This document shows, piece after piece, positions 4,102 through 60,908 of a stretch of DNA of 64,000 nucleotides (position 1 is the first letter of the stretch; every line of letters starts with the position of its first letter). Below the pieces are notes generated by a model, which saw only the letters and a list, made by a program, of their open reading frames with translations, had not been told where the DNA came from and searched no databases. A program made the translations under genes and the position numbers. This DNA is from an uncultured Amylibacter sp. (GTDB lineage Bacteria; Pseudomonadota; Alphaproteobacteria; Rhodobacterales; Rhodobacteraceae): NCBI GenBank assembly GCA_959347425.1, contig OY365741.1, forward strand, positions 1,760,501-1,824,500, read 5' to 3'.

Positions 4102-4597
4102 TAACGATTAACGATTAACGATTAACGATTAATGGGGGCTTTTGTGTATATAGAGCTTTTGCATAAGGGCAGTTGAACCTGCCCGACCAAGATAAAAACG
4201 TGCAAAAGCCCATACACAAAAGCCTTTGGTTGCAAGACGCTAGGTTTTTTATAAATTTACTATCTGGAATAACAAGACGGTAGAGTGGATTATTTGCAAA
4301 GAATACTTGGGAAGTGGTGATAGGTAATTTCTAAATTTATTTAGGCTTTGCCTAGATGCTTGGACAGACTTTAGCCATAAAACCCCGTCCAGCTCTCCGC
4401 AGGAGGGGTGGGCGGGTGGGCGACCGAACAAAGGGGCTTGCCCCGAAGTGAGGGCGCAACAAAAAACCTCTGCTCTTAACCTCTAATAACCAATCATCAT
4501 TATTTAGCCCTTCGGGTCTTCGTCATTTCTTCGAAATGCCGACCAGTCAAGAAGTGGCGGAAACATTAATCGTTAATCGTTAATCGTTCATCGTTAG
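4102..4597 (+). repeat. Modular intergenic repeat R1 with 7-bp arrays at both ends
   Basis: A full copy of the dispersed family, filling the gap between fdxA and the helicase-derived gene. Order: TTAACGA-type array (4102-4133); hairpin H2 with outer stem GGCTTTTGTGTAT (from 4138) pairing with ATACACAAAAGCC near 4212-4224, inner stem GAGCTTTTGCA with TGCAAAAGCCC, and a nested hairpin GGGCAG-TTGAAC-CTGCCC at 4167-4184; core (4225-4380) with ATTACTATCTGGAATAACAAG-like sequence; GC-rich hairpin block (about 4385-4460); hairpin H1 CATTTC-TTC-GAAATG at 4524-4538; second array (4565-4597). Here H1 lies after the core, unlike other copies. The final array supplies the stop codon of the gene at 4580. 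Confidence 0.85.
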
Positions 4598-5839
4598 TTT
4601 TAAAGCCTTAAGCTGGGCAAAGGGGTTATCAGGGTCAATCGGTTGTTTATGCGGGGGTTTTGGGTCTTTGCGATTGTCGGGGGATTTTTTACCACCAGCA
4701 TTTTTGCCTTTATCGTTTTTACCAGCAAAAACCTTGCGTCCAAAACTTTTGCCCTTATCGCTTTTGAACTTGTCAGTCTTAAATTTGGTGGGCGAATCGG
4801 TTTTAGGGGACTCTGCTCGTGCAAAGGGCTTGCGTTTGAAAATATAATAAATTTCTTCGTTGGGGTTGGGGGTGGTGGGTTCGGTCGTATCAGCTTTGGT
4901 TTTATCAACCTCGGTTGGCACAGGTTCAACCTCCTCAGTCGCAACTTCTTCAACCGCTTCAGCCACCGCCTCAGCCTTAACCGCCTCCGCCACATCATCC
5001 CCCGCAACCTCCGCAACCGCAACCTTCATCCGTGTATGCCTGTCCGCCGAATACCCCAATTCCTGCATCATCGCGGCGAAAGTTTCAAGGCTTGCCCCCG
5101 TGATAGACAGCATATCGCAATGCGATTCAAACCCCTCTTTCACATCACACTCCCGAATCATATTCGCCAGCCGTTCCAGCATATCAATCCGCACCGCCCA
5201 ATCGCCCAATTCCTGATAACCTGCCCGCCAATGATACCCCGAAGGCATATCTTTTAATGCAGGAATCGTCACCAAACCAGCCGATGGCACGATTGGGAAA
5301 TCCGCAAACCCCTCAAAAACCGCCCATAAAACCAGCCGTAACTGGGTTGGTGCGGGCTTTAATAACAGGGGTAAATAAATCATATATTGCCCAAACCGTA
5401 CGCCACATTTGCGCAACGGAGTGCGCGCGTCTTGGTCCATCTCTTTTATCGTTCTGCGCAGGAAACCACGGGGGACAACGCCCAGAGCCTCCACCAGACG
5501 TTTTGCCAAATACGCCCCGTTTGCGTGTTCGGGGGTTTTCAATGTTTCATCATCGCGCAGTGCCAAAAGCGGGGCGAAATGCATGGCAATTTTGCGTTCA
5601 ATAAAATGCCCCAAACGGCGGTGGATTTTTTCACGAATATCCGCGCCGACAGCTTCATCAATAAAAATCGCAACATCAGGGGTCAGCGCATCCGCGCCAC
5701 GGGTCAGCTTGCCCAGCGCAAGCCCATCCCTTGAGACCACACCATCCGCGCCCAAATCAAAATCTGTATCCGCCGCGTGGTAGAGTTTTTCCGCCCAAAG
5801 CGCGTGTTCGGCCTCCGTCTTGCCTATATCAATGGTCAT
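4580..5839 (-). CDS. SUV3-like helicase C-terminal region, helicase domain missing
   Basis: A 419-residue protein matching only the C-terminal part of alphaproteobacterial SUV3/MgpS-like helicases. Residues 1-250 carry that family's C-terminal signatures: RLGHFIERKIAMHFAPLLAL, LVEALGVVPRG, RKCGVRFGQYMIYLPLLLKP, and RIDMLERLANMIR. A Glu/Ala/Val-rich linker (about 265-330) and a Lys-rich tail ending DPDNPFAQLKALK follow, as in full-length relatives. Walker motifs and the rest of the helicase core are absent, and the next gene leaves no room for them. Start ATG at 5839 follows AGGACAAAT; a longer frame to 5941 exists but has no such site. The position beside fdxA-carD is the normal locus of the full helicase, so this looks like an N-terminal deletion kept open. 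The remaining function is unknown, possibly RNA binding. Confidence 0.7.
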   Translation of the reverse strand: MTIDIGKTEAEHALWAEKLYHAADTDFDLGADGVVSRDGLALGKLTRGADALTPDVAIFIDEAVGADIREKIHRRLGHFIERKIAMHFAPLLALRDDETLKTPEHANGAYLAKRLVEALGVVPRGFLRRTIKEMDQDARTPLRKCGVRFGQYMIYLPLLLKPAPTQLRLVLWAVFEGFADFPIVPSAGLVTIPALKDMPSGYHWRAGYQELGDWAVRIDMLERLANMIRECDVKEGFESHCDMLSITGASLETFAAMMQELGYSADRHTRMKVAVAEVAGDDVAEAVKAEAVAEAVEEVATEEVEPVPTEVDKTKADTTEPTTPNPNEEIYYIFKRKPFARAESPKTDSPTKFKTDKFKSDKGKSFGRKVFAGKNDKGKNAGGKKSPDNRKDPKPPHKQPIDPDNPFAQLKALKLTMND

Positions 5840-5955
5840 ATTTGTCCTAAATCCTAAAGGGAATGGGTCTGTTGGTTTATTCGCCCCCTGCGCTATGGTA
5901 ATTTTGCCAATAATGCAAGCCCTTTTATGGGTTTTATGCAAATTTACTATGTTTT

Positions 5956-6000
5956 AAGGGGGATTTAAAGGGGATTTGCAGGGGATTTACAGGGGGATTC
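5956..6000. repeat. Four tandem 11-bp repeats after the TPR gene
   Basis: Four imperfect units of the form (A/G)(A/C)AGGGGATTT run from 5956 to 6000, in the 3' end and downstream region of the leftward TPR gene. The stop codon of that gene is formed at the last unit (5999-6001). It may be a replication-slippage array with no function. Confidence 0.75.
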
Positions 6001-6628: not shown

Positions 6629-6645
6629 AATACATGGATATTAAC

Positions 6646-6669: not shown

Positions 6670-6698
6670 TTTTCACACTAAAACATTACAAAAGAGGG

Positions 6699-7923: not shown

Positions 7924-8361
7924 TGAATGGTGAATTATGAATGGTGAATTGTGAATGATGCCCTTCGGGTCTTCGTCATTGCTGCGCAATACCGACCAGC
8001 GTGGTCTTTTGTGCGTAGCCCCCGCTTCGCGGGAGCATGCCAAAAGCCCTTGGGTTTCAAGACGCTAGGGATTGTCATAAATTTACTATCTGGAATAACA
8101 AGACGATAGATTGGATTATTTGCAAAGAATACTTGGGAAGTGGTGATAAGTTTGCTCTAAATTTATTTAGGCTTTGCTTAAATGCTCGGACAGGCTTTAG
8201 CAAATAAAACCCGTCCGCCCAAGCCTCGCAGAGGGGTGGGCGGGCGGGCAAGCGAACGAAGTGAGTGCGCAAGAAAAAACCTCTGCCCTTAAATTCCAAT
8301 ACCTAACTCTTAATCCCTAATAACCAATCATTCATCGTTAATCGCTAATAGTTAATCGTTA
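7922..8361 (+). repeat. Modular intergenic repeat R2
   Basis: A full copy between the convergent hydrolase and methyltransferase genes. Order: GTGAATT/GTGAATG heptamers (7923-7960); H1 with stem ATTGC-TGC-GCAAT (7978-7990); H2 inner stem GCCCCCGC-TTC-GCGGGAGC (8018-8036, one mismatch) inside TCTTTTGTG...CCAAAAG; core from about 8075 to 8200; GC-rich block to 8260; AAAAAACCTCTGCCCTTAA; then degenerate TTAATCG arrays (8325-8361). The terminal array provides the methyltransferase stop codon at 8352-8354. Confidence 0.85.
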
Positions 8362-9641
8362 TTAAAACCCTCTATATCCTTAACAATCTTTTGCATATCA
8401 GGCTCGCGTACCCACTCGTGGCGACTTTTATATGTTGTATGGATATATTTTTCAATTTCGCGAAAGTTCGGAGTTAGGAAACTATATTCCAAAACATACC
8501 CACGGTCAGGGTCGGAGGTTTGGTAAGAATTCAGGCGTTTTTTCACATCAGACGCAATGCCAACTTTCCATTCTTTATCAATCCCTTCGTTAAACTTTTT
8601 ATTAGAAATAATATAAACATATTTCTGCGGTCGGGTATCCGCACCCATATCCGTGCGAACAGGCGGGTCGGTTTTGAAATCCACCAAATCCTCGGCAAAC
8701 AACGACCCTTCCCATTCCACTTCTTTTTTCATGCGGTCTTTGACCAATTCATACGCCTTTATCGACACATCCACGCCAACCCAAGCCCGACCCAGTTTTT
8801 CCGCCGCAACGCAGGTGGTCGCACACCCGCAAAACGGGTCTAAAACAATCCCACCGACAGGACAAGACGCGGCAATAATCCGTTCCAACAACGCCAGAGG
8901 TTTTTGCGTAGGATAACCAGTTCGTTCGCTTTCAATCCGCCCAACGGGGGAAAATTCATCCCACCAAGTCTCTGGCACTTTGCCTTTTTCAAGTTGCGCC
9001 TCCCGATACTCCCCGTGCAATTTACCGCCAATCCCACCGCCCCCGATTTGCTGGTTCAGCTTTTTATACGGCACACGGACGGCATCGGTATTAAACACCC
9101 AATCGCCACTGCAAACATAGCGGAAAATCACATCATGCTTGCGGGCGAAATCGCGCGTGGCATTGCTGGGGCCAGTGTAGCACCAGATGATTTCATTGCG
9201 GAAATTAGCCTCGCCAAAGATGCAATCCAACAGCAGTTTCAAATAATGCGACATGGTCGGGTCGCAATGGAGGTAAATTGACCCTGTTTGTTTCAGCACC
9301 CGTTGGCATTCTATCAGGCGAATCGCCATATAGGCAAGATAACAAAAGTTATAGGACGCACGACCCTCTATTACTTTCACGGTGGAAAGCAGGTTATGAA
9401 TAAAATAATGGTCTTCTTTAATATCCAGCAACCAGTCGTCTTTTACGTCTTCCTCGCGGAATATATCGGAAAAAGACGCACCTTCGGCATTACTGCCAAT
9501 AGGGGCTGTGAAAGTTTTCTTTTTATTAAACGGCGGGTCAAGGTAGATTAAATCCACGCAATCGGAATCTATCCCACGTAAAATTTCCAAATTATCGTGG
9601 CAAAATATCGTGCGGTTTTTTATGGAATCGTTGTTTAGCAA
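8352..9641 (-). CDS. Orphan beta-class DNA methyltransferase fused to a GIY-YIG-like domain
   Basis: A site-specific DNA methyltransferase of the N4-cytosine/N6-adenine type. Catalytic motif IV (YLDPPFN, about residue 34) precedes the AdoMet-binding motif I (LDPFCGCATT, about 270), the beta-class order, with TGYPTQKPLALLERII between. From about residue 345 a second domain begins (YVYIISN, WKVGIASDVKKRLNSYQT, FREIEKYIHTTYKSRHEW) resembling the T5orf172/MUG113 branch of GIY-YIG nucleases. I chose TTG 9641 as start because AAAGGGG lies 6 bases upstream; a TTG at 9674 gives 11 more residues. No restriction enzyme gene is adjacent, so it may be a solitary regulatory methylase or a self-contained modification/nicking protein. 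Its stop codon lies in repeat R2. Confidence 0.82.
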   Translation of the reverse strand: MLNNDSIKNRTIFCHDNLEILRGIDSDCVDLIYLDPPFNKKKTFTAPIGSNAEGASFSDIFREEDVKDDWLLDIKEDHYFIHNLLSTVKVIEGRASYNFCYLAYMAIRLIECQRVLKQTGSIYLHCDPTMSHYLKLLLDCIFGEANFRNEIIWCYTGPSNATRDFARKHDVIFRYVCSGDWVFNTDAVRVPYKKLNQQIGGGGIGGKLHGEYREAQLEKGKVPETWWDEFSPVGRIESERTGYPTQKPLALLERIIAASCPVGGIVLDPFCGCATTCVAAEKLGRAWVGVDVSIKAYELVKDRMKKEVEWEGSLFAEDLVDFKTDPPVRTDMGADTRPQKYVYIISNKKFNEGIDKEWKVGIASDVKKRLNSYQTSDPDRGYVLEYSFLTPNFREIEKYIHTTYKSRHEWVREPDMQKIVKDIEGFNND

Positions 9642-9720
9642 GATCTGCCCCTTTGTTTGGATGTGTGATAGCAAATATAGTAAGGGGTGTAAAGATTAAT
9701 AAGGAATTAATAATTAACAA

Positions 9721-10542
9721 CTAACCACCAATCGCTAACAACGCGGCCTCATACACCCGCCTATCCCCTGCGGCAATAATCTGCCCGTTATGTCCCCCGC
9801 CAATATACTCGCCACCTTGCCAATCGGTGATAATCCCACCGCTCGCCTGAACCAAGGCAATCGGCGCACAGATATCATAGGCATTCAAACCCGCCTCTAT
9901 CACCAAATCAATCTGCCCAGCCGCCAGCAAAGCATAAGCATAACAATCCAACCCATAGCGCACTAGCTGACACTGCCCCGCAACTCGCCCAAAGGCTGCG
10001 TGTTCCGCCCCTGTCCCAATCTCTGGAAACGTGGAAAACAGCACGGCATCGCGCAAATCGCGACACTCACGCACCGCCAACCCACGCACCGCGCCCATAA
10101 TAGCCTCCCGATGCACAACTTCCGCCCGCCCGAGCCCGCCACAAAACCGCTCGCCAATATAAGGCTGGTCAATCACCCCCAAAATCGGCGCACCCGTTTC
10201 ATCACACACCGCCACCAAAACCCCCCAACACGGCGTGCCAGAGATAAACCCCCGCGTTCCATCAATCGGATCAAGCACCCAGTTTAACCCAGACCGCCCG
10301 CTCACCGTGCCGAATTCTTCGCCAATAATCCCATCATCGGGGCGCACCCGCGCCAATATATCACGCATGGCCGATTCGATCTCGCGATCCGCGCGAGTCA
10401 CCGGATCAAACCCCGCCGTATCCTTGTTTTGCACACCCTGATTGGTTCGTCGGAAATAAGATAAAGCAATGTCATCCGCCACATCGCAGAGGTTTAAGGC
10501 TATATCCCATAGGCCTGCGTAGTTTTGTTTTGAACCAGTCAT
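9721..10542 (-). CDS. hisN: Inositol-monophosphatase-family phosphatase, probably histidinol-phosphatase
   Basis: A 273-residue Mg-dependent phosphatase. It has the family metal site: GEEFG (about 78), LDPIDGTRGFISGTPCWG (about 92-109) and the C-terminal AYDICAPIALVQASGG (about 223). The DPIDGTRxFxxGxPxWG form is characteristic of HisN, which removes phosphate from L-histidinol phosphate in histidine synthesis; a general IMPase role cannot be excluded. Start ATG follows AGGTTCAG. It lies 12 bases downstream of ubiG on the same strand and is probably cotranscribed. The stop sits at an AACAACTAACC heptamer-like tract similar to the repeat arrays seen elsewhere. Confidence 0.82.
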   Translation of the reverse strand: MTGSKQNYAGLWDIALNLCDVADDIALSYFRRTNQGVQNKDTAGFDPVTRADREIESAMRDILARVRPDDGIIGEEFGTVSGRSGLNWVLDPIDGTRGFISGTPCWGVLVAVCDETGAPILGVIDQPYIGERFCGGLGRAEVVHREAIMGAVRGLAVRECRDLRDAVLFSTFPEIGTGAEHAAFGRVAGQCQLVRYGLDCYAYALLAAGQIDLVIEAGLNAYDICAPIALVQASGGIITDWQGGEYIGGGHNGQIIAAGDRRVYEAALLAIGG

Positions 10543-10554
10543 ATCTGAACCTAC

Positions 10555-12244: not shown

Positions 12245-12376
12245 TGATTAACGATTAACGATTAACGATTAACGATGAATGATGAATTGTGAATTGTGAA
12301 TGATGCCCACAAGGGCAGTTGAACCTGCCCGAAAATAAAAATAATGTCTTCGTCATTTATTCGAAATGCCGACCAG
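12244..12376 (+). repeat. Partial copy of the modular repeat: heptamer array, nested hairpin, H1
   Basis: Between the convergent CPBP and Doc genes. The TTAACGA array (12245-12276) passes into GTGAATT/GATGAATG heptamers, then the nested hairpin GGGCAG-TTGAAC-CTGCCC at 12313-12330 followed by an A-rich run, then H1 (CATTT-ATTCG-AAATG near 12354-12368) ending GCCGACCAG. H2, the core and the GC-rich block are absent. The nested hairpin splits the CCCTTCGGGTC motif that precedes H1 in other copies. Confidence 0.8.
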
Positions 12377-12797: not shown

Positions 12798-12800
12798 AGA

Positions 12801-17853: not shown

Positions 17854-18219
17854 TTATTAGTTATTAGTTGTTAGTTATGAATAGTTGTTAGAGATTGTAG
17901 GTTTGTTATGTGTCGTTAAGGTCAGAGGTTTTTTGGTGCCCACCCGCCCACCCCTCCTGCGGAGAGCTGGCGTGCGGGTTTTATTGGCTAAAGCCTGTCT
18001 TTACATCTAGGCACAGCCTAAATAAATTTAGAGCAAACCCATCACCACTTCCCAAGTATTCTTTGCAAATAATCCAATCTCTCGTCTTGTTATTCCAGAT
18101 AGTAAATTTATAGAATCCCTAGCGTCTTGCAGCCAAAGGCTTTTGTGTATGGGCTTTTTCGCAAGAAAAAGCTCTATATGCACAAAAGCCACCACTAATC
18201 ACTAATCGCTAATCACTAA
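17841..18219 (-). repeat. Modular intergenic repeat R3 (reverse orientation)
   Basis: A copy between glnE and the BKACE gene, reversed relative to R1. Reading along the plus strand: ATTAGTT arrays (17843-17887), AGAGGTTTTTTG, GC-rich hairpin block (17937-17970), core in reverse complement (17985-18125), then H2 with outer stem GGCTTTTGTGTAT / ATGCACAAAAGCC and inner stem CTTTTTC-GCAA-GAAAAAG (about 18138-18190), and a terminal CTAATCA array (18191-18219). H1 is missing. Glutamine-synthetase adenylyltransferase translation stops inside the first array. Confidence 0.85.
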
Positions 18220-18225
18220 AACCCA

Positions 18226-30650: not shown

Positions 30651-31120
30651 GTTTTTAGCCCTTGCGGGTCTTCGTCATCGCGACATAGGGCAGTTGAACC
30701 TGCCCGCAAATTAAAACAATGAATGCCGACCAGCGTGGTCTTTTGTGCGTAGCCCCCACTTCGTGGGGGCATGCCAAAAGCCCTTTGGTTACAAGATGGT
30801 AATGATTCTATAAATTTACTATCTGGAATAACAAGACGTTAAATTGGATTATTTGCAAAGAATACTTGGGAATTGGTGATGGGTTTGCTCTAAATTTATT
30901 TAGGCTTTGCCTAGATGCTAGAACAGGCTTTAGCCATAAAAACCCGTCCGCCCAAGCCTCGCAGAGGGGTGGGCGGGCGGGAAGCCCGAACGAACGGGGC
31001 TTGCCCCGAAGTGAGGGCGAAACAAAAAACCTCTGCCCTTAACTTCTCATAACCAACCCACAATTCTTAATAACCAATCACTAATAACTAATAACTAACA
31101 ACTAATAACTATTAACACTT
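30651..31120 (+). repeat. Modular intergenic repeat R4
   Basis: A full copy between the MATE and msrA genes. H1 (from 30665) has the nested hairpin GGGCAG-TTGAAC-CTGCCC (30688-30705) inserted in its loop. H2 has the perfect inner stem GCCCCCAC-TTC-GTGGGGGC (30752-30770). The core runs about 30809-30940, the GC-rich hairpin (CCTC-GCA-GAGG) and GGGGC-TT-GCCCC follow to 31020, then AAAAAACCTCTGCCCTTAA and ACTAATA/ACTAACA arrays (31078-31112). Confidence 0.87.
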
Positions 31121-36910: not shown

Positions 36911-37446
36911 TTAATAGTGAACTATTAGTGATTAACGATTAACGAGTCTGCCCTTCGGGTCTTCGTCATTTCTTCGAAATGCCGACCAGCTCCAAGCGAT
37001 GGCGTGGTCTTTTGCGCGTAGTCTCTTACGCTCATAAGGGCAGTTGAACCTGCCCGACAAATAGGAAATTCGAGCGTAAGCAGACGTGGCGCAAAAGCCC
37101 TTTGGTTTCAAGACGCTAAGGATTCTATAAATTTACAAGCAGGATATACAAGACGATAGTTTAGATTATTTGTTTAGAATACTTGGGAAATGGCGATAGG
37201 TTTTCTATAAATTTATTTAGACACTATACAAGACGCTGAGCCAAACCCCAGCCAAAAAATAGCCCGTCCAGCTCTCCGCAGGAGGGGTGGGCGGGCGGGC
37301 GACATTTCAAAGTGGCTTGCCACAAAGAAATGGCGCAACAAAAAACCTCCGACCCTAATCCCAAATAACGAACCCCTAATCTCTAATAACCAATCACTAA
37401 CAACTAATAACTAACAACTAATAACTAACAACTAATAACTAAAAAC
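36911..37446 (+). repeat. Modular intergenic repeat R5 (longest copy)
   Basis: A copy between gapR and the ABC permease gene. TTAACGA array (36930-36944); H1 CATTTC-TTC-GAAATG (36967-36981); an extra small hairpin near CCAAGCGATGGCGTGG; H2 with arms CTTACGCTC/GAGCGTAAG and the nested GGGCAG-TTGAAC-CTGCCC hairpin (37038-37055) in its loop; a diverged core with a repeated CTATAAATTTA segment (about 37128-37225); GC-rich block; CATTTC-AAA-GTGGC-TT-GCCAC-AAA-GAAATG (about 37303-37332); then a 14-bp-period AACTAATAACTAAC array (37393-37440). The core reading frame seen in other copies is interrupted here. Confidence 0.87.
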
Positions 37447-41216: not shown

Positions 41217-41316
41217 TTTATCGTCTTGGTGCCAAAGGCTTTTGTGTATGGGCTTTTTCGCAAGAAAAAGCTCTATATACACAAAAGCCCCCACCTTCGC
41301 GTGGGGCTGGTCGTTA
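41217..41316 (-). repeat. Partial modular repeat: H2 hairpin between convergent genes
   Basis: A reversed fragment filling the whole gap between trpS and the histidine kinase. It contains AAGACGATAAA-like core edge, the H2 hairpin with outer stem GGCTTTTGTGTAT (41237-41249) / ATACACAAAAGCC (41277-41289), inner stem CTTTTTC-GCAA-GAAAAAG (41253-41270), then hairpin CCCCAC-CTTCGC-GTGGGG (about 41290-41307) and CTGGTCGTTA. The kinase stop codon lies at the end of the element. It is likely a bidirectional transcript end. Confidence 0.85.
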
Positions 41317-42705
41317 AGCAGGTTTCGGCAAACTAATCCGAAAGATCACCCCTGTATTATCGCTTTTCACCAAATCCAGCATCCCGCCGTGTCCTTTAAT
41401 CAGCTCTGCGCTAATCGCCAAACCCAGCCCAGTGCCACCCCTCCGCGCCCCGCCTTCAAAGGGTTTAAACAAATTATCCAACGCCTTGGCGGGCAGCCCC
41501 GGACCATCATCGCTTACCTCTATCAGCCACGCGGTAGCATTATCCTCTATCCGAACATCAATCTGCCCGGCCTTTTTACCCTGTTCCAAAACCTGCCTTG
41601 CATTGCGAATCAGGTTTAACAAAACGCGGTATAACTGCTCGCGGTCGGCAAAAATCTGCACGGCACGGTCGATATCATGAGCAAAGACTATCTGTCCAGA
41701 TTCCCCCGCCCCAAGCGATAGTTTTTCATCCTCAAAAATATCATCAATAATCTCTGCGACCGAGAAATAACCCAATTCGGGCTGGCGTTCCTCGGCGCGA
41801 CCATAGCGCAGAGTACTCTCACACAAGCTAACCGCCCGCGACAGAGTCGTCATCAATTTCGGCACGGTTTTTTGCACCTGCGGGTCTTTGCTGATTTCCA
41901 TCCTATCCGCCAATAATTGCGTTGTCGTCAATATATTACGCAAATCGTGGCTGATTTTGGATACAGCCCCGCCCAGATTCGCCAGCCGTCTGCGTTCCTT
42001 AAACGACGCATTAATCTGCTGTTGCATATCGTGCAGGGTTTCTTCCGCCTCATATAACTCGTTAATGCCCGCCGTTGGGGTGATGAAATTATCATTATCG
42101 GGCGCGTCCTTAAACGCCCGCATGGAGAATATCACGCGGTTAATCGGGCGCACAATCAATCGCTGAACCGCCCAAAATAACAACCCTGCCGTGACCCCCG
42201 AAATCAGCAGGGATAGGCGTAGGATATTGTAAAAATACTCCCACATAGCCTCATGCAACGGGGTTTCCACCAGCACCACATCTATCAAATCGCCACCGCT
42301 TTTCACCGGCAAGCCAATCACCCGTACCAGACGATCCTGACCGTTAAACATGGTATCAAACGAATCGCTTATTAAATAGCGAAAGTTGTCATCGCGCAGA
42401 TCAACGATACGCCCAACCGCACTGGGCAAGGTACTCCGCAATACCAACACGCGCAAATCATCACGACGCAAAGCAATGGAAATAACACTGGCGGTGTCCA
42501 GCAATTCTTTCGCCAAATCTGGCCCCAGCGATAAATTCGGTCCAGCAAGCACCGCCAGCGATGCGATTTGGGCGCGTTGCAATCGCTCGTTCAAATAATC
42601 ATAGCGAAACCGTGCCAAGGATGGCACAAGAATCAAAACCTCCGCCAGCATGACAAATACAATTGTCAGCATTAAGAATCGCCCCGAAAGTGATCGTAAG
42701 AACAT
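41314..42705 (-). CDS. Membrane sensor histidine kinase
   Basis: A 463-residue two-component kinase. Helix one (about 8-30) and helix two (about 160-180) enclose a periplasmic sensor region of about 130 residues. A HAMP-like segment (RLIVRPINRVIFSMRAFKDAP) follows, then a dimerisation helix with the phospho-acceptor in KISHDLRNILTTTQLL (about 254-269), and an HATPase_c domain with NLIRNARQ (N box, about 364), DDGPGLP (G1) and GGTGLGLAI (G2). A response regulator is not adjacent, so the signal and partner are unknown. The stop overlaps the neighbouring repeat fragment. Confidence 0.9.
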   Translation of the reverse strand: MFLRSLSGRFLMLTIVFVMLAEVLILVPSLARFRYDYLNERLQRAQIASLAVLAGPNLSLGPDLAKELLDTASVISIALRRDDLRVLVLRSTLPSAVGRIVDLRDDNFRYLISDSFDTMFNGQDRLVRVIGLPVKSGGDLIDVVLVETPLHEAMWEYFYNILRLSLLISGVTAGLLFWAVQRLIVRPINRVIFSMRAFKDAPDNDNFITPTAGINELYEAEETLHDMQQQINASFKERRRLANLGGAVSKISHDLRNILTTTQLLADRMEISKDPQVQKTVPKLMTTLSRAVSLCESTLRYGRAEERQPELGYFSVAEIIDDIFEDEKLSLGAGESGQIVFAHDIDRAVQIFADREQLYRVLLNLIRNARQVLEQGKKAGQIDVRIEDNATAWLIEVSDDGPGLPAKALDNLFKPFEGGARRGGTGLGLAISAELIKGHGGMLDLVKSDNTGVIFRISLPKPA

Positions 42706-45287: not shown

Positions 45288-45334
45288 CGCAGGGGGCTGT
45301 ATCCCGCAGCCCTGTATCGCAAAGCCCAGTTCCA

Positions 45335-47325: not shown

Positions 47326-47829
47326 TGGTTAGCGATTAACGATTAATTTTTTAGCCCTTCGGGTCTTCGTCATAACTTCGTTATGCCAACCAGCGTGGTC
47401 TTTTGTGCGTAGCCCCCGCTTCGCGGGGGCATGCCAAAAGCCCTTTGGTTATAAGATGCTAGGGATTCTATAAAATTACTATCTGGAATAGCAAGACGTT
47501 AGATTGGATTATTTGCAAAGAATACTTGGGAAGTGGCGATAGGCAATTTCTAAATTTATTTAGGCTGTGCCTAGATGCTCGGATAGGCTTTAGCCATAAA
47601 AACCCGTCCGCCCAAGCCTCGCAGAGGGGTGGGCGGGCGGGAAGCCCGAACGCAGGGGCTTGCCCCGAAGTGAGGGCGAAAGCAAAAAACCATTCACCTC
47701 TCGCCATTAACCGCTAATCGTTAATTTTAGCCCTTGCGGGTCTTCGTCATCCCTGCGGGATGCCGACCAATCAAGAAGTGGCAAAAACATTCACCGTTAA
47801 TCGCTAATCGTTAATCGTTAAATAGACAG
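47326..47829 (+). repeat. Modular intergenic repeat R6, with a second H1 copy
   Basis: A full copy between convergent yidD and the DUF1223 gene. TTAGCGATTAACGA array (47329-47346); H1 CATAAC-TTC-GTTATG (47371-47385); H2 inner stem GCCCCCGC-TTC-GCGGGGGC (47412-47430); core 47468-47600; GC-rich block with CCTC-GCA-GAGG and GGGGC-TT-GCCCC; TTAACCGCTAATCGTTAA array (47707-47726); second H1 CATCCC-TGC-GGGATG (47748-47762); GACCAATCAAGAAGTGGC as also found after H1 in R1; final TTAATCG array (47793-47822). Confidence 0.87.
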
Positions 47830-47831
47830 GG

Positions 47832-48581: not shown

Positions 48582-48787
48582 AGTCTTTGGCGTACCTTTT
48601 CTTTTGGCAAAATAATCTTTGCCTCTATCCTTTTATGGAAAAATAGATTCAAATGCCAATAAAGATTTCGCGAGCAGGGCGAAAAACGGCGAAATACACA
48701 AAGAATTGATGATTTTGACTTCTAAACTTCTAAATTTTTGCTTTAATCAATCTTACTATACAAAAAATTTAACTCGGAGGACATCCA

Positions 48788-49159: not shown

Positions 49160-49170
49160 CTTCCCTAACC

Positions 49171-51864: not shown

Positions 51865-51880
51865 GTGTTTGCTTTCTTTG

Positions 51881-52750: not shown

Positions 52751-52871
52751 AAGTTTAATCCTATGTTATATGGTTATTAGCGGCTCTTTGTCCGCATGTA
52801 AGGTCACTTTACACACTCTTGGGGGCAGTTTCAAGCGTAATTATGCATAATCACGCAAAATTGGCGGATTT

Positions 52872-54422: not shown

Positions 54423-57196
54423 GAGATTGCGCCCTTTGTACCTTGTTCCAAAACCGCACGAAGCCCCGTGGCTATCGCATCTTGTTTCGCCTTATCGTGG
54501 ATTTTCTTACCCACCATGTCTTTCACATAAAACACATCCACCGCCTGAACTCCATAGGTGACAATCACGGCATGGACGATATAAATGTTCGCCGCCAGCA
54601 GGTTTTTCGTTAAATCAAACAGCAAACCACGCCGATCGCGGGTGCTGATTTCTATGATAGAATAGCGTTCAGACCCCTCATTATCAATCGTAATCGTGGT
54701 GGCAACCTTAAAATCACGCTCGCGTTTTTTAAATTTATCCTTGGCGGTTAGCTCCTTTTTCGCCTGAACCTTGCCCATTAGGGTTTTCATAATCATCGGG
54801 TGAAGCCGTTTGATATGGTTTTCCTGATAGGGTTTGCCGTTCGTGTCCTGCAACCAGAAAATGGCAATGGAAAACCCGTCAGAGGTAGTGTAAATATGGG
54901 CATAAATAATATTCGCCTTAACCAGAGCCAACGCCCCGCTAATACGTGAAAAAATCCCCGGATGCTCGTGCATGACAAAACACGCACGGGTGGCATCGCG
55001 GCTTTCATCTTGTTCCAAATGGCTGAGCAGGCTTTCCTTGCCCATATCGTTTAACAACCGCGCACAGGTGAGGTGAGAGGCCGCGTCCAGCTCTAACCAA
55101 TACGGCTCATAATGGCGATTCATTTCGGTTTCCACCTGTTTGGGCGACCAATCGGTAAGGTTTTGACGCAGAGTATCCTTGGCGAGTTTTATCCGCTCCG
55201 CCCCCTGGGTGTCGGTGCTATCCTCGCCCATCAAACGAGTATGGGTCACGCGGTATAAATCGCGCAATAATTGCGCCTTCCAGTTATTCCAGCAATTCGG
55301 ACCAACCCCGCGAATATCGCAAACGGTCAGCACGGTCAGTAAATCCAAGCGGTTCGTATCTTGCACCTGTTCGGCAAACTTCTGCACGGTACGCGGGTCG
55401 GACACATCGCGTTTTTGGGCAAAATCGGACATCACCAGATGATTGCGTACCAGCCAAATCACTGTATCCGTCTCTGCCTTATCCAAGCCCAAACGCGGGC
55501 AAATATCACGAGCAAGCCGCGCCCCCGCGATGGAATGGTCTTCGGGCAAACCCTTGCCAATATCGTGTAATAAAATAGCGATATACAAAATCCGCCTTTG
55601 CACCCCGCGTTCAATAATGCCAGAGACTACTGGCAAATCCTCTTTCAAATCGCCTGATTCCAGCTTTGCCAGCACGGATATACATTGAATCGTATGCTCA
55701 TCAACCGTGTAATGATGGTAAATGTTAAACTGCATCATGGCGATGATACGCCCAAATTCGGGGATAAACGCGCCAAGCACGCCCAATTCATTCATTAAAC
55801 GCAGGGCGTGTTCGGGATTGCCATAGACCAGCAGAAGGTCAAGAAAAATCTTTTGTGCCTCTTGCGATTGGTGCAAGGTTTCATCAATCAGGTGCAGGTT
55901 GGAGATAATCAACCGCCGCGCATCGGGATGGATGATAAAATCGGTACGTAGGGAGTCTTCAAAAATCCGCATGATATTGACTGGGTCTTTCAGAAAAACC
56001 TCCTCATCCGTTATGATAATATCACGGCGTTTCGCGCCGTAACCGTTAATACCACGCAGCGAGCGACCACGTCGCCAAGCAACCGTCTCCCACAATCGTT
56101 TGTGCAGGGGACGGGGGACTTTTATATGTTGCTCACGCAGGGCGGTTAGGAAAAGACCGCTGAGTTCCCCCACCAAAGTTGCCGTGCGGAAATAATCCTG
56201 CATAAAGGATTCCACCCCGTGTTGGCCTTGGTTATCCTTATAGCCCAGCACGCGGGCAATATGGATTTGCGCATCAAAGGTCAAATGCTCGGCGGCGCGC
56301 CCGGCGTAAAGATGCAAATGACAGCGCACGGTTAGCAAAAACCCATGCGCCGTTTCAAACCGTTCGTACTCGGTGCGGTTAAGATAGCCCTTGGCAATCA
56401 TCGATTCGGCGGTTTTCGTCTGGGCGAGGTGTTTGGTAATCCAATATAACGCTTGCAGGTCGCGCAGACCGCCTTTGCCTTCCTTTATATTCGGCTCTAA
56501 CACATACCGCGCCCGCCCATGCCGATGATGGCGGTTTTCGCGTTCCTCTAGTTTTTCTTTGACATAGGTGGTTTGGTTCGCCACCGCCAGTTTTTTCATA
56601 AATACCGTGTCAAGCTGGTCGGCAAGGATGGTATCTCCGCAGAGGTATCTGCTTTCTAATAGGGCGGTTTGGATGGTTTGGTCGTTTGCGCCCAGTGTGA
56701 TACATTCGTCTATTGTCCGCGTGGCATAGCCCAGTTTTATCCGTAAATCCCATAGGATATAAAGCATGGTTTCAATGGCGGTTTTCGTCCATTGGCATTT
56801 TTTATCGGCGAAAAGGAAGAGCAAATCAATATCCGAATAGGGTGCCATTTCGCCGCGTCCATAACCGCCAACGGCTATCAGGCTGAGCCCTTTTGGGGCG
56901 GTTGGATTGGGGCTGGTTTTTAGGGTGAAATCAAAGACGGCTTGGATGATTTGGTCGATAAGGGTGCTGTAATGCTGGGTTGCTTGCTTGCCATTATGCG
57001 GGGTTTTGTGGAAGGTGTCGCTGATTTCGGTAAAGCCTGTTTTATAGGCGGTATTGAGGATTTGGGCGGCTTGTTTGCGTAAGATATCGGCGGTTAGGTC
57101 TTGGGTGAGTAAGGCGTTTAGCTCACGCATCACCGTTTTTTTATTGAAAAAGGTGGCGGGTTTGGGGGGAGTTTTTTTTTGGGGAGTGGCTGGCAT
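54419..57196 (-). CDS. glnD: [Protein-PII] uridylyltransferase/uridylyl-removing enzyme
   Basis: A 925-residue glutamine sensor that uridylylates PII when nitrogen is low. Domains in order: nucleotidyltransferase (AVGGYGRGEMAPYSDIDLLFLF, about 107-128), GlnD linker, HD hydrolase (ILLHDIGKGLPEDHS, about 535-549) for deuridylylation, and two C-terminal ACT domains (FVMHEHPGIFSRISGALAL, about 720; EISTRDRRGLLFDLTKNL, about 840). The length is typical. It feeds the PII cascade that controls GlnE at 15.1 kb. Translationally coupled to murJ. Confidence 0.96.
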   Translation of the reverse strand: MPATPQKKTPPKPATFFNKKTVMRELNALLTQDLTADILRKQAAQILNTAYKTGFTEISDTFHKTPHNGKQATQHYSTLIDQIIQAVFDFTLKTSPNPTAPKGLSLIAVGGYGRGEMAPYSDIDLLFLFADKKCQWTKTAIETMLYILWDLRIKLGYATRTIDECITLGANDQTIQTALLESRYLCGDTILADQLDTVFMKKLAVANQTTYVKEKLEERENRHHRHGRARYVLEPNIKEGKGGLRDLQALYWITKHLAQTKTAESMIAKGYLNRTEYERFETAHGFLLTVRCHLHLYAGRAAEHLTFDAQIHIARVLGYKDNQGQHGVESFMQDYFRTATLVGELSGLFLTALREQHIKVPRPLHKRLWETVAWRRGRSLRGINGYGAKRRDIIITDEEVFLKDPVNIMRIFEDSLRTDFIIHPDARRLIISNLHLIDETLHQSQEAQKIFLDLLLVYGNPEHALRLMNELGVLGAFIPEFGRIIAMMQFNIYHHYTVDEHTIQCISVLAKLESGDLKEDLPVVSGIIERGVQRRILYIAILLHDIGKGLPEDHSIAGARLARDICPRLGLDKAETDTVIWLVRNHLVMSDFAQKRDVSDPRTVQKFAEQVQDTNRLDLLTVLTVCDIRGVGPNCWNNWKAQLLRDLYRVTHTRLMGEDSTDTQGAERIKLAKDTLRQNLTDWSPKQVETEMNRHYEPYWLELDAASHLTCARLLNDMGKESLLSHLEQDESRDATRACFVMHEHPGIFSRISGALALVKANIIYAHIYTTSDGFSIAIFWLQDTNGKPYQENHIKRLHPMIMKTLMGKVQAKKELTAKDKFKKRERDFKVATTITIDNEGSERYSIIEISTRDRRGLLFDLTKNLLAANIYIVHAVIVTYGVQAVDVFYVKDMVGKKIHDKAKQDAIATGLRAVLEQGTKGAIS

Positions 57197-57254
57197 GGGG
57201 AATGCAATCGGGCGTTTGTGTTTTTGTGTAGTGTGGTTTATTTTTGACGGATTG

Positions 57255-57705
57255 TAAATAGTGATTAGTTATTAGTTATTAGTTATTAGTTGTTAGTTAT
57301 TAGTGATGCCCTTGCGGGTCTTCGTCATCGCTTGCGCGAATGCCAACCAGCGTGGTCTTTTGTGCGTAGCCCCCGCTTCGCGGGGGCATGCCAAAAGCCC
57401 TTTGGTTACAAGATGATAATAATTCTATAAAATTACTATCTGGAATAACAAGACTATAGATTGGATTATTTGTTTAGAATACTTGGGAATTGGCGATAGG
57501 TTTGCTCTAAATTTATTTAGGCTGTGCCTAGATGCTTGGATAGGCTTTAGCCATAAAAACCCGTCCGCCCAAGCCTCGCAGAGGGGTGGGCGGGCGGGCA
57601 ACCGAACGCAGTGAGGGCGCAACAAAAAACCTCCGCTCTTAACCTCTAATAACGAACCCATAATTCTTAACAACTAATAACTAACAACTAACAACTAAAA
57701 CAAGG
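57255..57705 (+). repeat. Modular intergenic repeat R7
   Basis: A full copy between the glnD start and the end of the lpoA-like gene. ATTAGTT array (57259-57302); H1 region CATCGC-TTGCGCGAATG (57326-57342); H2 inner stem GCCCCCGC-TTC-GCGGGGGC (57369-57387); core 57425-57560; GC-rich block with CCTC-GCA-GAGG; AAAAAACCTCCGCTCTTAACC; ACTAATAACTAACA array (57671-57700). Confidence 0.86.
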
Positions 57706-58903
57706 GGCTATTCACATTTTGCGGCGCGGGGGAAATCACACGAAACGATGTCCCCGTCGGCTCGCCAATCGCCAAAGCACGGCGATTCGTCCCGTCCTTT
57801 TGCAAAATAAACAACCCCGCCGCCCCGATAAACCCTTGCCGCCGCGTCAGAGCATTGCGCATCAACGCACCCGTATCACCGTTTTGCAACCCCGTGCCAA
57901 TGGCGATAATCGCATCATAAGCCAACCCAGCAAGCGGATGCGGCGCACGATAATATCTATCCAAAAACCGTTGATTAAACGCGCTGGTGGCAAAGGTATC
58001 TGGCAAGGTAAACCACCCCGAATTGAGCCCAGGCGTGGAAAGATTGGACGCAGGAATATCCCAACGGGTGGTGCCAAGGACTTTGACCCTTGCGTCATCC
58101 AATCCCTCACGCGAAAGCGCTTGCCCCAATTGCGACAACCCACCATCCGAATCGGCACTTAACACAATCGCGCCTGTCGCCGTTGCAATCACTTGCTGTA
58201 TAATAAACGGGCTGGCCTCAACAATCCCTTTGGGGGAAAACGGATAGGTGAAATCGCCGCTATATTCCAGCCCCAAGGTCTGCGCCGCGCTGGCAACGGC
58301 AGTGGCGGTCTGCACCCCGCCCGCGTTTTGGGCAGAGACACTGGCAAAACGGTTATACCCGCGTGTGGCGGCATAGCCCATCACTCGATTGGCGCGATTT
58401 TCAAAGGTTGTGCCAAGGATAAACAGGTTCTTATCGGCGATTCGACCGTTGTTTGAAAAGCTAAGAATGTTGATATTGGCATCCGTCAATTCGCGTTTCA
58501 CCGCCGTGGCGGAGGTTGAAAACAACGGCCCAACGATGATTTGTGATTCAAATTGGCGGGCATCTTGGGCGGCTTTTATCGCGCCCTCAGTTGTGCCTTC
58601 GGTGATAAAGATGTTAAGGTTCAGGTTCAGGTTGGGAAAGCTATCGCGGGCAAGTTCGGCGGCTTCCACCAGATTTGTCGCCAAGGCGTGGATATTCGGA
58701 TCCGTGGCGTTTAACGGCACCAACAGGGCGATGTTTATCGGCTCTGCCAAATCAACCAATTGCCCATAATTATCAGGGTCTATTGGCGCAATTTCTGTTT
58801 TGGGCGGTCTTGGCGCACAGGCAATCAGCCCGCCAAGCAAAAACAGGCATAGGGCAAAAATCCCCAAATGGGTGGCGGTTTTGGGCGATGGATATTTGAG
58901 CAT
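57695..58903 (-). CDS. LpoA/YraM-like penicillin-binding protein activator
   Basis: A lipoprotein of 402 residues. The signal LCLFLLGGLIACAP has the lipobox cysteine at about residue 28. The rest is a periplasmic binding-protein type 1 fold (INIALLVPLNATDPNIHALATNLVEAAELA, about 48-77; IIVGPLFSTSATAVK; ILSFSNNGRIADKNLFILGTT; AGLAYDAIIAIG). This matches the LppC/LpoA family, which in enterics activates PBP1a from the outer membrane; in alphaproteobacteria the enteric TPR half is missing, as here. ATG 58903 is chosen because the longer frame (58984) adds no family sequence. yraN and gshB lie divergently next to it, the usual locus, but rsmI is absent. Confidence 0.85.
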   Translation of the reverse strand: MLKYPSPKTATHLGIFALCLFLLGGLIACAPRPPKTEIAPIDPDNYGQLVDLAEPINIALLVPLNATDPNIHALATNLVEAAELARDSFPNLNLNLNIFITEGTTEGAIKAAQDARQFESQIIVGPLFSTSATAVKRELTDANINILSFSNNGRIADKNLFILGTTFENRANRVMGYAATRGYNRFASVSAQNAGGVQTATAVASAAQTLGLEYSGDFTYPFSPKGIVEASPFIIQQVIATATGAIVLSADSDGGLSQLGQALSREGLDDARVKVLGTTRWDIPASNLSTPGLNSGWFTLPDTFATSAFNQRFLDRYYRAPHPLAGLAYDAIIAIGTGLQNGDTGALMRNALTRRQGFIGAAGLFILQKDGTNRRALAIGEPTGTSFRVISPAPQNVNSPLF

Positions 58904-59119
58904 GGGGTCTTTTTTATAACTGTTTTGGTGGCAAAAGCGCGGGGATGAAACCTGCATTATAAGGCAGTTAGGCAAAGAGTGCAAATGCTGTATAAAACCG
59001 TGGCGGTAAAAAAGTGGAAAAAGTTGGCTGGCGTTAACCTTTTGTTAACCTTTTTGCTGCACGGTATTAGGTGTGATATAAGTTTGACTTGAAAAACGAT
59101 ACAATAGGGACGATAGGTT

Positions 59120-59509
59120 ATGGATTGCAAAATCAGTTACGAAGACATCAAAATCAAAAATAAAATCAGCAGGAACTATCGTGCTGGTTTGCAGGCAGAG
59201 GAAATCGTTGCCCAGAAATATCAGGACTGCGGTTTTGAAATCATCGGGCGACGGGTGCGACGGCGGGAGGGGGAGCTGGATATCATCGCCGCCCACAAAA
59301 ACAAATTTTATTTTATCGAAGTGAAGAAATCCACGGATTTTTATTCGGCGGGCATACGGATTACTCCACAAAAGATAGAACGACTAAAATGTGCGGCCTT
59401 GCGGTTTTTAGCCGATCATAAGCATCCTTTGGATACGTATATGCGGTTTGACGCGGCTTTGGTTGATAAATTCTGGCGGGTTAAGGTTATTACAAACGCC
59501 TTTGCATAA
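59120..59509 (+). CDS. yraN: YraN-family (UPF0102) endonuclease-like protein
   Basis: A 129-residue protein of the UPF0102 family with a restriction-endonuclease-like core: G-x-x-AEEIVAQKYQDCGFEIIGRRVRRREGELDIIAAHKNKFYFIEVKKS (about 24-72), where E-D and E-x-K form the predicted metal site, then ITPQKIERLKCAALRFL. Members are linked to DNA or cell-wall processes but have no settled activity. The N-terminal 20 residues (YEDIKIKNKISRNYRAG) form a basic helix. A terminator separates it from gshB. Confidence 0.9.
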   Translation: MDCKISYEDIKIKNKISRNYRAGLQAEEIVAQKYQDCGFEIIGRRVRRREGELDIIAAHKNKFYFIEVKKSTDFYSAGIRITPQKIERLKCAALRFLADHKHPLDTYMRFDAALVDKFWRVKVITNAFA

Positions 59510-59540
59510 TTGCATAATGCGCCGATAAAGGCTATTAAGG

Positions 59541-59586
59541 CTTTGTGTCTTTTGTTCATTCCGGACAAAAGGTGCAAAGTTTTTTT
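59541..59586 (+). terminator. Rho-independent terminator after yraN
   Basis: CTTTG-TGT-CTTTTGT pairs with ACAAAAG-GTG-CAAAG around a 9-base loop (TCATTCCGG), followed by seven Ts. It ends 13 bases before the gshB start, so gshB transcription likely depends on readthrough or a promoter within the same short region. Confidence 0.85.
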
Positions 59587-59599
59587 ATGAGGTCAAACC

Positions 59600-60547
59600 A
59601 TGCCCCTTCACGTTGCCTTTCAAATGGATTCGATTGAATCCATTGACATAAACGCCGATACTACTTTCCGCTTGATGGAGGAGGCGCAAGCCCGTGGTCA
59701 TCAGTTATTTTATTATCTGCCCGATATGCTGTCCTATCAGCAGGGGCGAATCACGGCGCGGGGTTGCCCGATAACCCTGCGCAGAAAACAAGGTGCGCAT
59801 TTTGTTTTGGGCGATATGCAAGAGGTGGATTTGGCAAAGCAAGACGTGATTTGGCTGCGCCAAGACCCGCCTTTTGATATGAATTACATCACGACAACCC
59901 ATATTTTGCAGATGCTTGGTGAAAAAACTGTGGTTGTTAATGACCCGTTTTGGGTGCGTAATTTTCCCGAAAAGCTGCTGGTTTTGCAGTTTCCTGATTT
60001 AACCGTGCCAACGACTATTGCCCGTGATTTGACAACGATTAAGCAGTTTAAAAAGGAGTATGGCGATATTATATTAAAGCCTCTTTACGGCAATGGCGGG
60101 GCTGGGGTGTTTCGCCTGTCTGATACGGATCAGAATTTGAATGCTTTGCATGAGATGTTTTGTGCCACCAGCCGCGAGCCGATGATTGTGCAAAAGTTTC
60201 TAAAAGACGTGACCTTTGGCGATAAACGTATTATTTTGGTGAATGGTGAGCCGATTGGCGCGATTAACCGTATTCCGCAAAAGGGCGAAGTGCGCTCTAA
60301 CATGCATATCGGCGGGGTTGCCCATAAGGATGGTTTGACCGAGCGGGATTATGAGATTTGTCGCGCGATTGGTCCTTTGTTGCGTGAAAAGCGGCAGGTT
60401 TTGGTTGGGATTGATGTGATTGGCGGGTTTTTGACGGAAATCAATGTGACCTCGCCCACGGGGATACAGGAGATTGAGCGGTTTGATGGGATAAATATTG
60501 CGGAAGCTGTTTGGCAGGCGGTGGAAGGTTTAGTTGTTAGTTATTAG
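59600..60547 (+). CDS. gshB: Glutathione synthetase
   Basis: A 315-residue ATP-grasp enzyme joining gamma-glutamylcysteine and glycine. Characteristic segments are AFQMDSIESIDINADTTFRLMEEAQARGH (about 5-33), WLRQDPPFDMNYITTTHIL (about 91-109), VNDPFWVRNFPEKLL, ILKPLYGNGGAGVFRL (ATP-grasp, about 153-168), and GIDVIGGFLTEINVTSPTGIQEI (about 271-293). The ribosome site TGAGGT is weak. Its final codons (LVVSY) and TAG stop are formed by the TTAGTTG array of repeat R8, a clear case of the repeat contributing coding sequence. Confidence 0.96.
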   Translation: MPLHVAFQMDSIESIDINADTTFRLMEEAQARGHQLFYYLPDMLSYQQGRITARGCPITLRRKQGAHFVLGDMQEVDLAKQDVIWLRQDPPFDMNYITTTHILQMLGEKTVVVNDPFWVRNFPEKLLVLQFPDLTVPTTIARDLTTIKQFKKEYGDIILKPLYGNGGAGVFRLSDTDQNLNALHEMFCATSREPMIVQKFLKDVTFGDKRIILVNGEPIGAINRIPQKGEVRSNMHIGGVAHKDGLTERDYEICRAIGPLLREKRQVLVGIDVIGGFLTEINVTSPTGIQEIERFDGINIAEAVWQAVEGLVVSY

Positions 60548-60908
60548 TTGTGAGTTATTAGTGATTGGTTATTAAGAATTGTGGGTTCGTTATTAGAAGT
60601 TAAGAATAGAGGTTTTTTGTTGCGCCATTTCTTCGAAATGTCGCCCGCCCGCCCACCCCTCCTGCGGAGAGCTGGACGGGCTATTTTTTGGCTGGGGTTT
60701 GGCTCAGCGTCTTGTATATAGTCTAAATAAATTTATAGAATCACTATCGTCTTGAAACCCAAGGTCTTTTGCGCCACGTCTGCTTACACGCCAAAGCGTG
60801 TAAGAGACTACGCGCAAAAGACCACGCCATCGCGTGGAGCTGGTCGGTATCGCGTAAGCGATGACGAAGACCCGCAGGGCTATTCATCATTCATCGTTAA
60901 TCATTAAA
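60531..60908 (-). repeat. Modular intergenic repeat R8 (reverse orientation, core deleted)
   Basis: A copy between convergent gshB and comM. In plus-strand order: TTAGTTG/ATTAGTT array (60531-60570); GAGGTTTTTTG; CATTTC-TTC-GAAATG (60627-60641) in the GC-rich block; CTCC-GCA-GGAG-type hairpin; a short core remnant with AAATAAATTTATAGAAT; H2 with CTTACACGC-CAAA-GCGTGTAAG (60783-60804) and outer arms CTTTTGCGC/GCGCAAAAG; H1 ATCGC-GTAA-GCGAT (60849-60862); TTAATC array (60890-60908). Compared with R5, a segment of about 80 bp (one of two CTATAAATTTA units) is missing. Confidence 0.87.

What the first reader, a model, noticed from the sequence alone, without database searches (positions are those of the whole stretch)
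4524..60862. Compensatory changes preserve the H1 stem in different copies
H1 lies between CTTCGTC and GCCGACCAG. Its stem differs between copies yet stays paired: CATTTC/GAAATG (4524-4538, 36967-36981), ATTGC/GCAAT (7978-7990), CATAAC/GTTATG (47371-47385), CATCCC/GGGATG (47748-47762) and ATCGC/GCGAT (60849-60862). Loops are TTC, TGC or GTAA. Both arms changed together four times while flanks remained nearly identical, the classic sign of selection on a folded RNA or hairpin DNA. An alternative is template-switch repair copying one arm onto the other.
Basis: seen in the sequence. Interest (0 to 1): 0.85.

Follow-up and report, generated by a model that had tools for sequence, protein, structure and literature searches.

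The report
Shuffled palindromic repeats with swapping hairpins
Copies of a small DNA hairpin scattered between genes of a probable sponge-symbiont bacterium keep their two arms matched while the letters change, but the hairpin resembles a known kind of bacterial repeat, and its tip may be replaced as a block rather than mended letter by letter.

Summary
In the eight uninterrupted copies two inner pairs change on both sides without one-sided standard intermediates; covariation 0.444 against 0.090 shuffled, 0 of 500. The two measures least misled by relatedness are not significant (285 and 48 of 500). H1 has the layout of a CGTC-tagged REP (PMC3733652), but its stem is 5-6 bp, not 8-9. It sits in a composite repeat beside gene ends, also found in contigs named Candidatus Halichondribacter symbioticus.

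'Selection on a fold' is only partly supported. Stem types do not follow element relationship: F and I differ by 8% elsewhere yet have different stems; H and I differ by 27% yet share one; 3 of 10 element pairs show significantly faster stems, uncorrected. A mini-hairpin insert of about 36 bp maps to loops of four hairpins here (4 of 4). Block replacement of hairpin tips (template switching or exchange), on elements that may also be transcribed, fits best. Function was not shown. New variant of a known kind.

The parts
4524..4538 (+). H1 copy A2, CATTTC/TTC/GAAATG, in a short unit (about 4490-4590)
7977..7991 (+). H1 copy B, ATTGC/TGC/GCAAT, outer C.A unpaired; element B about 7955-8290
12354..12368 (+). 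H1 copy C, CATTTA/GAAATG, one pair broken; truncated element with the insert in the H0 hairpin (insert core 12313-12330; part of H0's right arm is missing)
30676..30725 (+). H1 copy E interrupted in its loop by the insert (core 30688-30705; part of the right arm is missing); element E about 30655-31045
36967..36981 (+). H1 copy F, CATTTC/TTC/GAAATG; element F about 36946-37350; insert core 37038-37055 in its H2 loop
47371..47385 (+). H1 copy G, CATAAC/TTC/GTTATG; element G about 47350-47700
47748..47762 (+). H1 copy G2, CATCCC/TGC/GGGATG, in a short unit (47716-47820) 80% identical to the A2 unit (4492-4596)
57326..57342 (+). H1 copy H, CATCGC/TTGC/GCG-A-ATG (bulge); element H about 57306-57640
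60848..60863 (-). H1 copy I, ATCGC/TTAC/GCGAT, outer C.A unpaired; element I about 60600-60886
4130..4470 (+). Element A without H0/H1; insert core 4167-4184 in the loop of its H2-type hairpin (9-bp perfect flanking arms)
17895..18200 (-). Element D without H0/H1
41225..41320 (-). Fragment J: H2-type hairpin between two convergent genes
60623..60646 (+). Near the far end of element I, on the strand opposite to the element's H1: CATTTC/TTC/GAAATG, the same 15 bases as H1 of A2 and F
   Evidence: family D10, 88% identity over 24 nt

Best explanation
H1 is a short hairpin laid out like a CGTC-tagged REP (tag CGTC, stem beginning AT and ending AT, small loop, unpaired CC after it), built into a larger composite palindromic repeat that lies beside gene ends in an alphaproteobacterium, most likely Candidatus Halichondribacter symbioticus or close kin. 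Shown: arms differ between copies and still pair; stem type is uncoupled from the relatedness of the elements. Seen by comparison of copies: several other hairpins of the repeat do the same, and a mini-hairpin of about 36 bp with an A-rich tail sits where hairpin loops are. Inferred: hairpin tips are rewritten as units, because a polymerase at a hairpin switches to the other arm or to another copy's hairpin and copies a perfectly paired tip. Pairing is then produced by the mutation process itself, and tips that break the fold may also be weeded out if the repeat acts in the 3' ends of mRNAs.
For: Covariation against shuffles and slid structures, with no one-sided standard intermediates at the two varying pairs; arm permutation 2 of 720. 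F and I: 21 of 261 positions different elsewhere, both inner pairs replaced; H and I: 64 of 236 different elsewhere, same inner stem. The 15-base hairpin of A2 and F recurs inverted at another site of element I. Two-sided changes also in H2 tips, H4 and H5. Insert in hairpin loops: 4 of 4 in the window by comparison with uninterrupted copies; two of them (4167, 37038) keep 9-bp perfect flanking arms, a length reached at 7 of 3000 random positions. Of the 120 peptide relatives 22 carry an insert motif; by my reading of the peptides 20 of these 22 place it in the loop of H0, H1, H2 or H4. Template switching is a described source of multi-base compensatory changes (PMC8794818, abstract and passages).
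Against: Only eight uninterrupted DNA copies and two varying pairs in H1; copies are related, so events are few. The two measures least misled by relatedness are not significant (285 and 48 of 500). Only 3 of 10 element pairs are below 0.05 before correction (0.007, 0.015, 0.018), and none would survive correction for ten tests. Of 102 peptide copies of H1 from other contigs (E up to 1; 95 of them below 0.001), 79 read as one stem type, though frame and query bias that sample. No loop inversion with a stem change was demonstrated. The insert flanks of C and E no longer form arms above chance, and 2 of 22 insert-bearing peptides (P0090, P0119) seem to carry it beside H0 rather than in a loop.
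Confidence: 0.5

Rival explanations
1. Classic RNA selection: the repeat is transcribed in 3' untranslated regions and single mutations in a stem are compensated one by one because the folded RNA protects or ends the message.
For: All 10 element sites lie beside at least one gene end and none between divergent genes, by my choice of ORFs. RNA fold z-scores -1.9 to -5.9 for the H0-H2 part of elements B, G, H and I on both strands. REPs are described as lying downstream of genes and plausibly transcribed (PMC3733652).
Against: No one-sided standard intermediates at the varying pairs; in 3 of 10 element pairs the stem is faster than the rest, uncorrected; both strands fold about equally well, and on the element strand of H the predicted best fold does not contain H1 as drawn. 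No expression data.
Confidence: 0.28
2. Neutral recombination among an old library of REP variants: different H1 hairpins existed first, and gene conversion through the nearly identical flanks shuffles them; nothing rewrites arms now.
For: Identical H1 in A2 and F in different downstream contexts; H and I share an inner stem across 27% divergence. REP families are reported to contain subsets with alternative complementary stem residues (PMC3733652).
Against: Does not explain how the variants arose, nor why inserts sit in loops; does not by itself explain two-sided changes in the inner tips of H2 and H5.
Confidence: 0.17
3. Chance likeness of short hairpins.
For: Stems are short (5-6 bp); two of five measures are not above shuffles.
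Against: 0 of 500 shuffles on three measures and 2 of 720 permutations.
Confidence: 0.03

Closest known systems
CGTC-tagged REP sequences (Di Nocera et al. 2013, PMC3733652; includes dRS3 of Neisseria and RPE-4/RPE-6 of Rickettsia conorii)
   Same: CGTC tag, complementary AT at the first two stem positions, small loop, unpaired bases with CC after the stem, downstream of genes, alphaproteobacterial, variants with alternative complementary stem residues; no transposase among the ORFs scanned here
   Different: Stem 5-6 bp instead of 8-9; loop 3-4 instead of 4-5; part of a composite element of about 300-450 bp; tail GCC or ACC rather than CCA
BIMEs, bacterial interspersed mosaic elements (as described in PMC3733652)
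   Same: Several palindromic modules together in intergenic regions
   Different: Modules differ in sequence; long AT-rich core; AT-rich heptamer tracts at the ends
REPs lodged in palindromes (A. variabilis GTAG-15, T. roseum GTAG-23, H. neapolitanus CGTC-1; PMC3733652, passage)
   Same: A small repeat placed inside a palindrome
   Different: Here one insert maps to several different hairpins (H0, H1, H2 and, from peptides, H4) of one composite repeat
Template-switch compensatory changes in RNA genes (PMC8794818)
   Same: Several compensatory changes at once, fold kept
   Different: There in rRNA genes; here in non-coding repeats, with loop insertions and apparent exchange between copies

Membership tests
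CGTC-tagged REP | CGTC tag before the hairpin | tested here: met
   9 of 9 copies. A perfect hairpin of 5 bp or more follows CGTCAT at 7 of 38 places against 1 of 319 for the 11 other orders of the letters; but 6 of the 7 are H1 copies themselves, so beside H1 it is 1 of 32, and this shows no wider CGTC family in the window
CGTC-tagged REP | Complementary AT at the first two stem positions | tested here: met
   Columns 8-22 and 9-21 invariant in 7 of 7 distinct rows
CGTC-tagged REP | Stem 8-9 bp | tested here: not met
   5-6 bp in the uninterrupted copies, with a bulge in H and a broken pair in C
CGTC-tagged REP | Loop 4-5 nt | tested here: inconclusive
   3 nt in A2, B, C, F, G, G2; 4 nt in H and I; longer if the closing C-G is counted as loop
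CGTC-tagged REP | Unpaired short tail, mostly CCA | tested here: inconclusive
   GCC or ACC follows the AT arm in 9 of 9 copies; not CCA
CGTC-tagged REP | Between co-directional or convergent genes, downstream of coding regions | tested here: met
   10 sites: 5 convergent, 5 co-directional, 0 divergent, by my choice of ORFs supported by protein families for most flanking genes; the ORF at 4580-5941 has no Pfam match and yidD was recognised by eye
CGTC-tagged REP | Mostly head-to-head dimers | tested here: inconclusive
   One H1-like hairpin inverted at the far end of element I; other elements not resolved
CGTC-tagged REP | No dedicated transposase | tested here: inconclusive
   No transposase family reported for 46 distinct ORF products of the 113 ORFs listed (NCBIfam at 1e-20; Pfam at 1e-3; Pfam at 1e-5); the rest of the genome was not available
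Intrinsic terminator | GC-rich hairpin followed by a T run | tested here: inconclusive
   Only 47000-61000 was scanned: 28 sites against a shuffled mean of 20.9; two lie in an element, both in I (60837-60822 and 60691-60708), none at H1
Known Rfam RNA | Match at gathering score | tested here: not met
   0 matches in the window

The most novel reading that the evidence does not exclude
A process acting on DNA hairpins is at work in this symbiont: hairpin loops are preferred landing sites for a mini-hairpin of about 36 bp, and hairpin tips are exchanged or rewritten as perfectly paired blocks between different hairpins, in either orientation. Covariation, normally read as proof of a functional RNA, would then be produced by mutation throughout a repeat family.
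Probability: 0.3. Interest if true: 0.7.

Novelty: new variant of a known kind. Interest (0 to 1): 0.42.

Why it matters
Covariation is the standard proof of a functional RNA. A repeat family in which stems covary but seem to change faster than their surroundings, with an insert marking hairpin loops, is a natural test of whether template switching or loop-directed insertion can imitate that proof. It also extends CGTC-like palindromes to a probable sponge symbiont, in a composite form.

Tried and rejected
Relatives by DNA. The pattern scan of 84,980 species genomes gave 65 stretches; blastn of four window elements against all 65 gave one 24-base match, so I judged them chance. The core DNA in related genomes gave 3 weak short matches of 198 (E 0.002-0.009), 0 of 390 and 0 of 293; the sets overlap and the tool warns that an empty answer proves nothing. 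The insert pattern gave 0 of 33 genomes and the H1 flank pattern 1 of 33, two matches that do not look like hairpins. Viral contigs, plasmids and phages: no match; with the core peptide alignment 47 pattern stretches in viral contigs but no confirmed relative.

Tag control: 6 of its 7 positives are H1 itself, so it was dropped as support for a wider CGTC family.

Wobble asymmetry (C.A against G.T mismatches, to tell which strand folds): too few events, inconclusive. In one search the helix arms were chosen by eye, H and E were left out of H1, elements B, E, G and H were left out of the H2 outer arm, and the H2 outer-arm rows of F and I were out of register, so that helix is not used; a further helix (H1b) has no two-sided change. 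The H1 identity figures used wrong columns and were replaced. Nucleotides read back by hand from peptides are inference and carry no weight in the statistics.

Papers: seven searches. PMC2267715 was seen as abstract and outline and PMC12306157 as passages; neither changed the reading.
Full report
What was checked. A search for each flank with up to one mismatch adds three copies it missed: C at 12354 with one broken pair, H at 57326 with a one-base bulge, and E at 30676, whose loop holds an insert of about 36 bp. The copy at 60849 lies on the minus strand.

Is it more than chance? Eight uninterrupted copies (7 distinct) were aligned and the six pairs counted. 90.5% of 42 cells pair (shuffled mean 74.6, 0 of 500 as high); 7 cells change on both sides (2.2, 0 of 500); the covariation score is 0.444 (0.090, 0 of 500; slid structures at most 0.159). 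Two measures are not above shuffles: pairs with a two-sided change (2 against 1.5, 285 of 500) and further pair types (5 against 2.9, 48 of 500). The tool states that these two are the least misled by relatedness and that the shuffle counts are not probabilities. Two pairs carry all the two-sided changes (T-A, A-T and C-G at one; G-C, T-A, A-T and C-G at the other); two pairs never vary; two depart only by unpaired cells. No cell shows a one-sided standard change. Permuting right arms among six distinct rows, without H and E, gives 2 of 720. Folded alone, H1 is the predicted structure in 7 of 9 copies, not in C and E.

What H1 is. The hairpin always follows CGTC and its stem has AT at the first two positions, paired. 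The paper by Di Nocera and colleagues (PMC3733652; abstract, first part, first half of the Discussion, the CGTC section and passages read) describes CGTC-tagged REPs: tag CGTC, AT at the first two stem positions, stems of 8-9 bp, loops of 4-5, tails mostly CCA, predominance in alphaproteobacteria, position downstream of genes, no associated transposase genes, and subsets with alternative stem residues. H1 meets tag, AT and position; its stem is shorter, and loop and tail deviate. So it is laid out like a CGTC REP and is best called a short variant, not a member of the four described families. In this window a perfect hairpin of 5 bp or more follows CGTCAT at 7 of 38 places, against 1 of 319 for the eleven other orders of the letters; six of the seven are H1 itself and the seventh (29399, minus strand) lies elsewhere, so this is no evidence for a wider CGTC family here.

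The larger element. H1 is one module of a composite repeat (names H0 to H5 are mine): heptamer tract, H0 (GCCC-loop-GGGT), H1, a large hairpin H2 with exchangeable tips, an AT-rich core (CTATCTGGAATAACAAGACG...), a GC-rich hairpin H4, a further hairpin H5, and a second heptamer tract. Not every copy has every part. Elements A, B, D, E, F, G, H and I, the short units A2 and G2, the truncated C and the fragment J lie in the window. The 10 sites all lie beside a gene end: 5 between convergent and 5 between co-directional genes, by my choice of ORFs. Rfam has no match. No transposase family was reported for 46 distinct products of the 113 ORFs listed.

Where it comes from. No genome is held for the window. 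Its GlnD is at most 59% identical in the matches listed from 289, 244, 33 and 394 sampled genomes (overlapping sets). The repeat was sought through the meaningless peptides it encodes: 3, 16 and 102 proteins (at E up to 0.01, at E up to 1, 95 of the 102 below 0.001; 120 distinct). Eight of the 102 are named Candidatus Halichondribacter symbioticus, which NCBI taxonomy places in Rhodobacterales, Paracoccaceae. The window is therefore most likely from that sponge symbiont or close kin; this is inference. The genome paper by Knobloch and colleagues (2020), seen only as a reference in PMC8994243 (passages), is not held, so I cannot say whether it describes these repeats. The listed results of searches (15 of 28 papers; 10 of 5,736) show none about them by title and start of abstract.

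How it changes. Other hairpins show two-sided changes too: nine pairs in six helices counting H1, with arms chosen by eye, for example GCCCCCGC/GCGGGGGC against GCCCCCAC/GTGGGGGC in H2, and CTTACGCTC/GAGCGTAAG against CTTACACGC/GCGTGTAAG in F and I. Each of these other helices has only two or three variants, so none is significant alone. Comparing whole elements, F and I differ at 21 of 261 other positions but at both inner H1 pairs (p=0.007 with pairs as units); G against H (p=0.015) and B against G (p=0.018) point the same way; the other seven of ten pairs do not reach 0.05 (0.065 to 1.0), and none of the ten would survive correction. H and I share their inner stem although 64 of 236 other positions differ. 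The 15 bases of H1 in A2 and F appear inverted at another place in element I. Slow compensation under RNA selection would not be expected to give faster stems, no intermediates and stem types crossing element lineages; replacement of the tip as a block would.

Inserts in loops. The sequence GGGCAGTTGAACCTGCCC with an A-rich tail occurs four times in the window: in the loops of an H2-type hairpin (A), H0 (C), H1 (E) and H2 (F). In A and F the flanks form 9-bp perfect arms, a length reached at 7 of 3000 random places; in C and E the arms are damaged (3 bp, ordinary), and the assignment rests on comparison with uninterrupted copies. Of the 120 peptides 22 carry an insert motif. Read by eye, they place it at H1 (12, one of which also has it at H0), H0 (P0108, P0109), H2 (P0011, P0042, P0106, P0113) and, in the opposite orientation, H4 (P0006, P0018); P0090 and P0119 seem to carry it beside H0 rather than in a loop. 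REPs lodged in palindromes are known from other bacteria (PMC3733652, passage).

Mechanism. Template switching during replication can make or restore perfect stems in a single event and gives clustered compensatory changes (PMC8794818; abstract and passages). It accounts for matched arms without intermediates; switching to another copy accounts for exchanged tips; loops would be natural sites for templated or transposed inserts. The last two steps are my inference. RNA folding of the H0-H2 part of B, G, H and I is stronger than shuffles on both strands (z -1.9 to -5.9), though on the element strand of H the best fold does not contain H1 as drawn; an RNA role at gene ends is possible but not shown, and selection may still filter outcomes. 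Against this reading: the sample is small, the measures least misled by relatedness are not significant, and 79 of 102 peptide copies read as one stem type, although that search was biased by query and reading frame.

Verdict. Observation confirmed; the interpretation as plain RNA selection is only partly supported; the kind is known (REP/BIME), the form is new to me and to the searches made. A complete genome of the symbiont would settle most of it.

Noticed in passing
4100-4136, 4561-4598, 9705-9728, 12242-12288, 17840-17880, 18191-18220, 31073-31117, 36924-36947, 37396-37447, 47795-47823, 57257-57308, 57668-57702, 60529-60558, 60882-60907: AT-rich heptamer tracts (TAACGAT, TAGTTAT, TGAATGG types): 14 of the 16 period-7 runs found, two T/G-rich runs (14843, 27159) dropped; 8 of the 14 lie within 60 bases of one of the gene stops I listed, 2 near a gene start. 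They carry stop codons in all three frames on 27 of 28 strand-tracts, against a mean of 15.4 (maximum 23) when the unit letters are shuffled and repeated, 5.3 when the tract letters are shuffled, and 128 of 4200 random window pieces. Compare TAACTGA heptamer repeats in Beggiatoaceae (PMC4679880, abstract only), mostly just before start codons.
   Followed up: partly
4167-4184, 12313-12330, 30688-30705, 37038-37055: A mini-hairpin with an A-rich tail (about 36 bp) found in hairpin loops; it recurs in peptides of other contigs in both orientations.
   Followed up: partly
45278-47083: RNase P protein (PF00825 at residues 24-129) whose ORF runs on for about 470 residues of Arg/Asp/Gly-rich text with 117-base tandem repeats, directly before a YidD-like ORF (recognised by eye, not by a call).
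   Followed up: no
8352-9674: DNA methylase (PF01555) fused to a T5orf172 domain (PF10544), next to element B.
   Followed up: no
29399, minus strand: One CGTC-tagged hairpin (ATCGT/CATA/ACGAT) outside the composite repeats.
   Followed up: no
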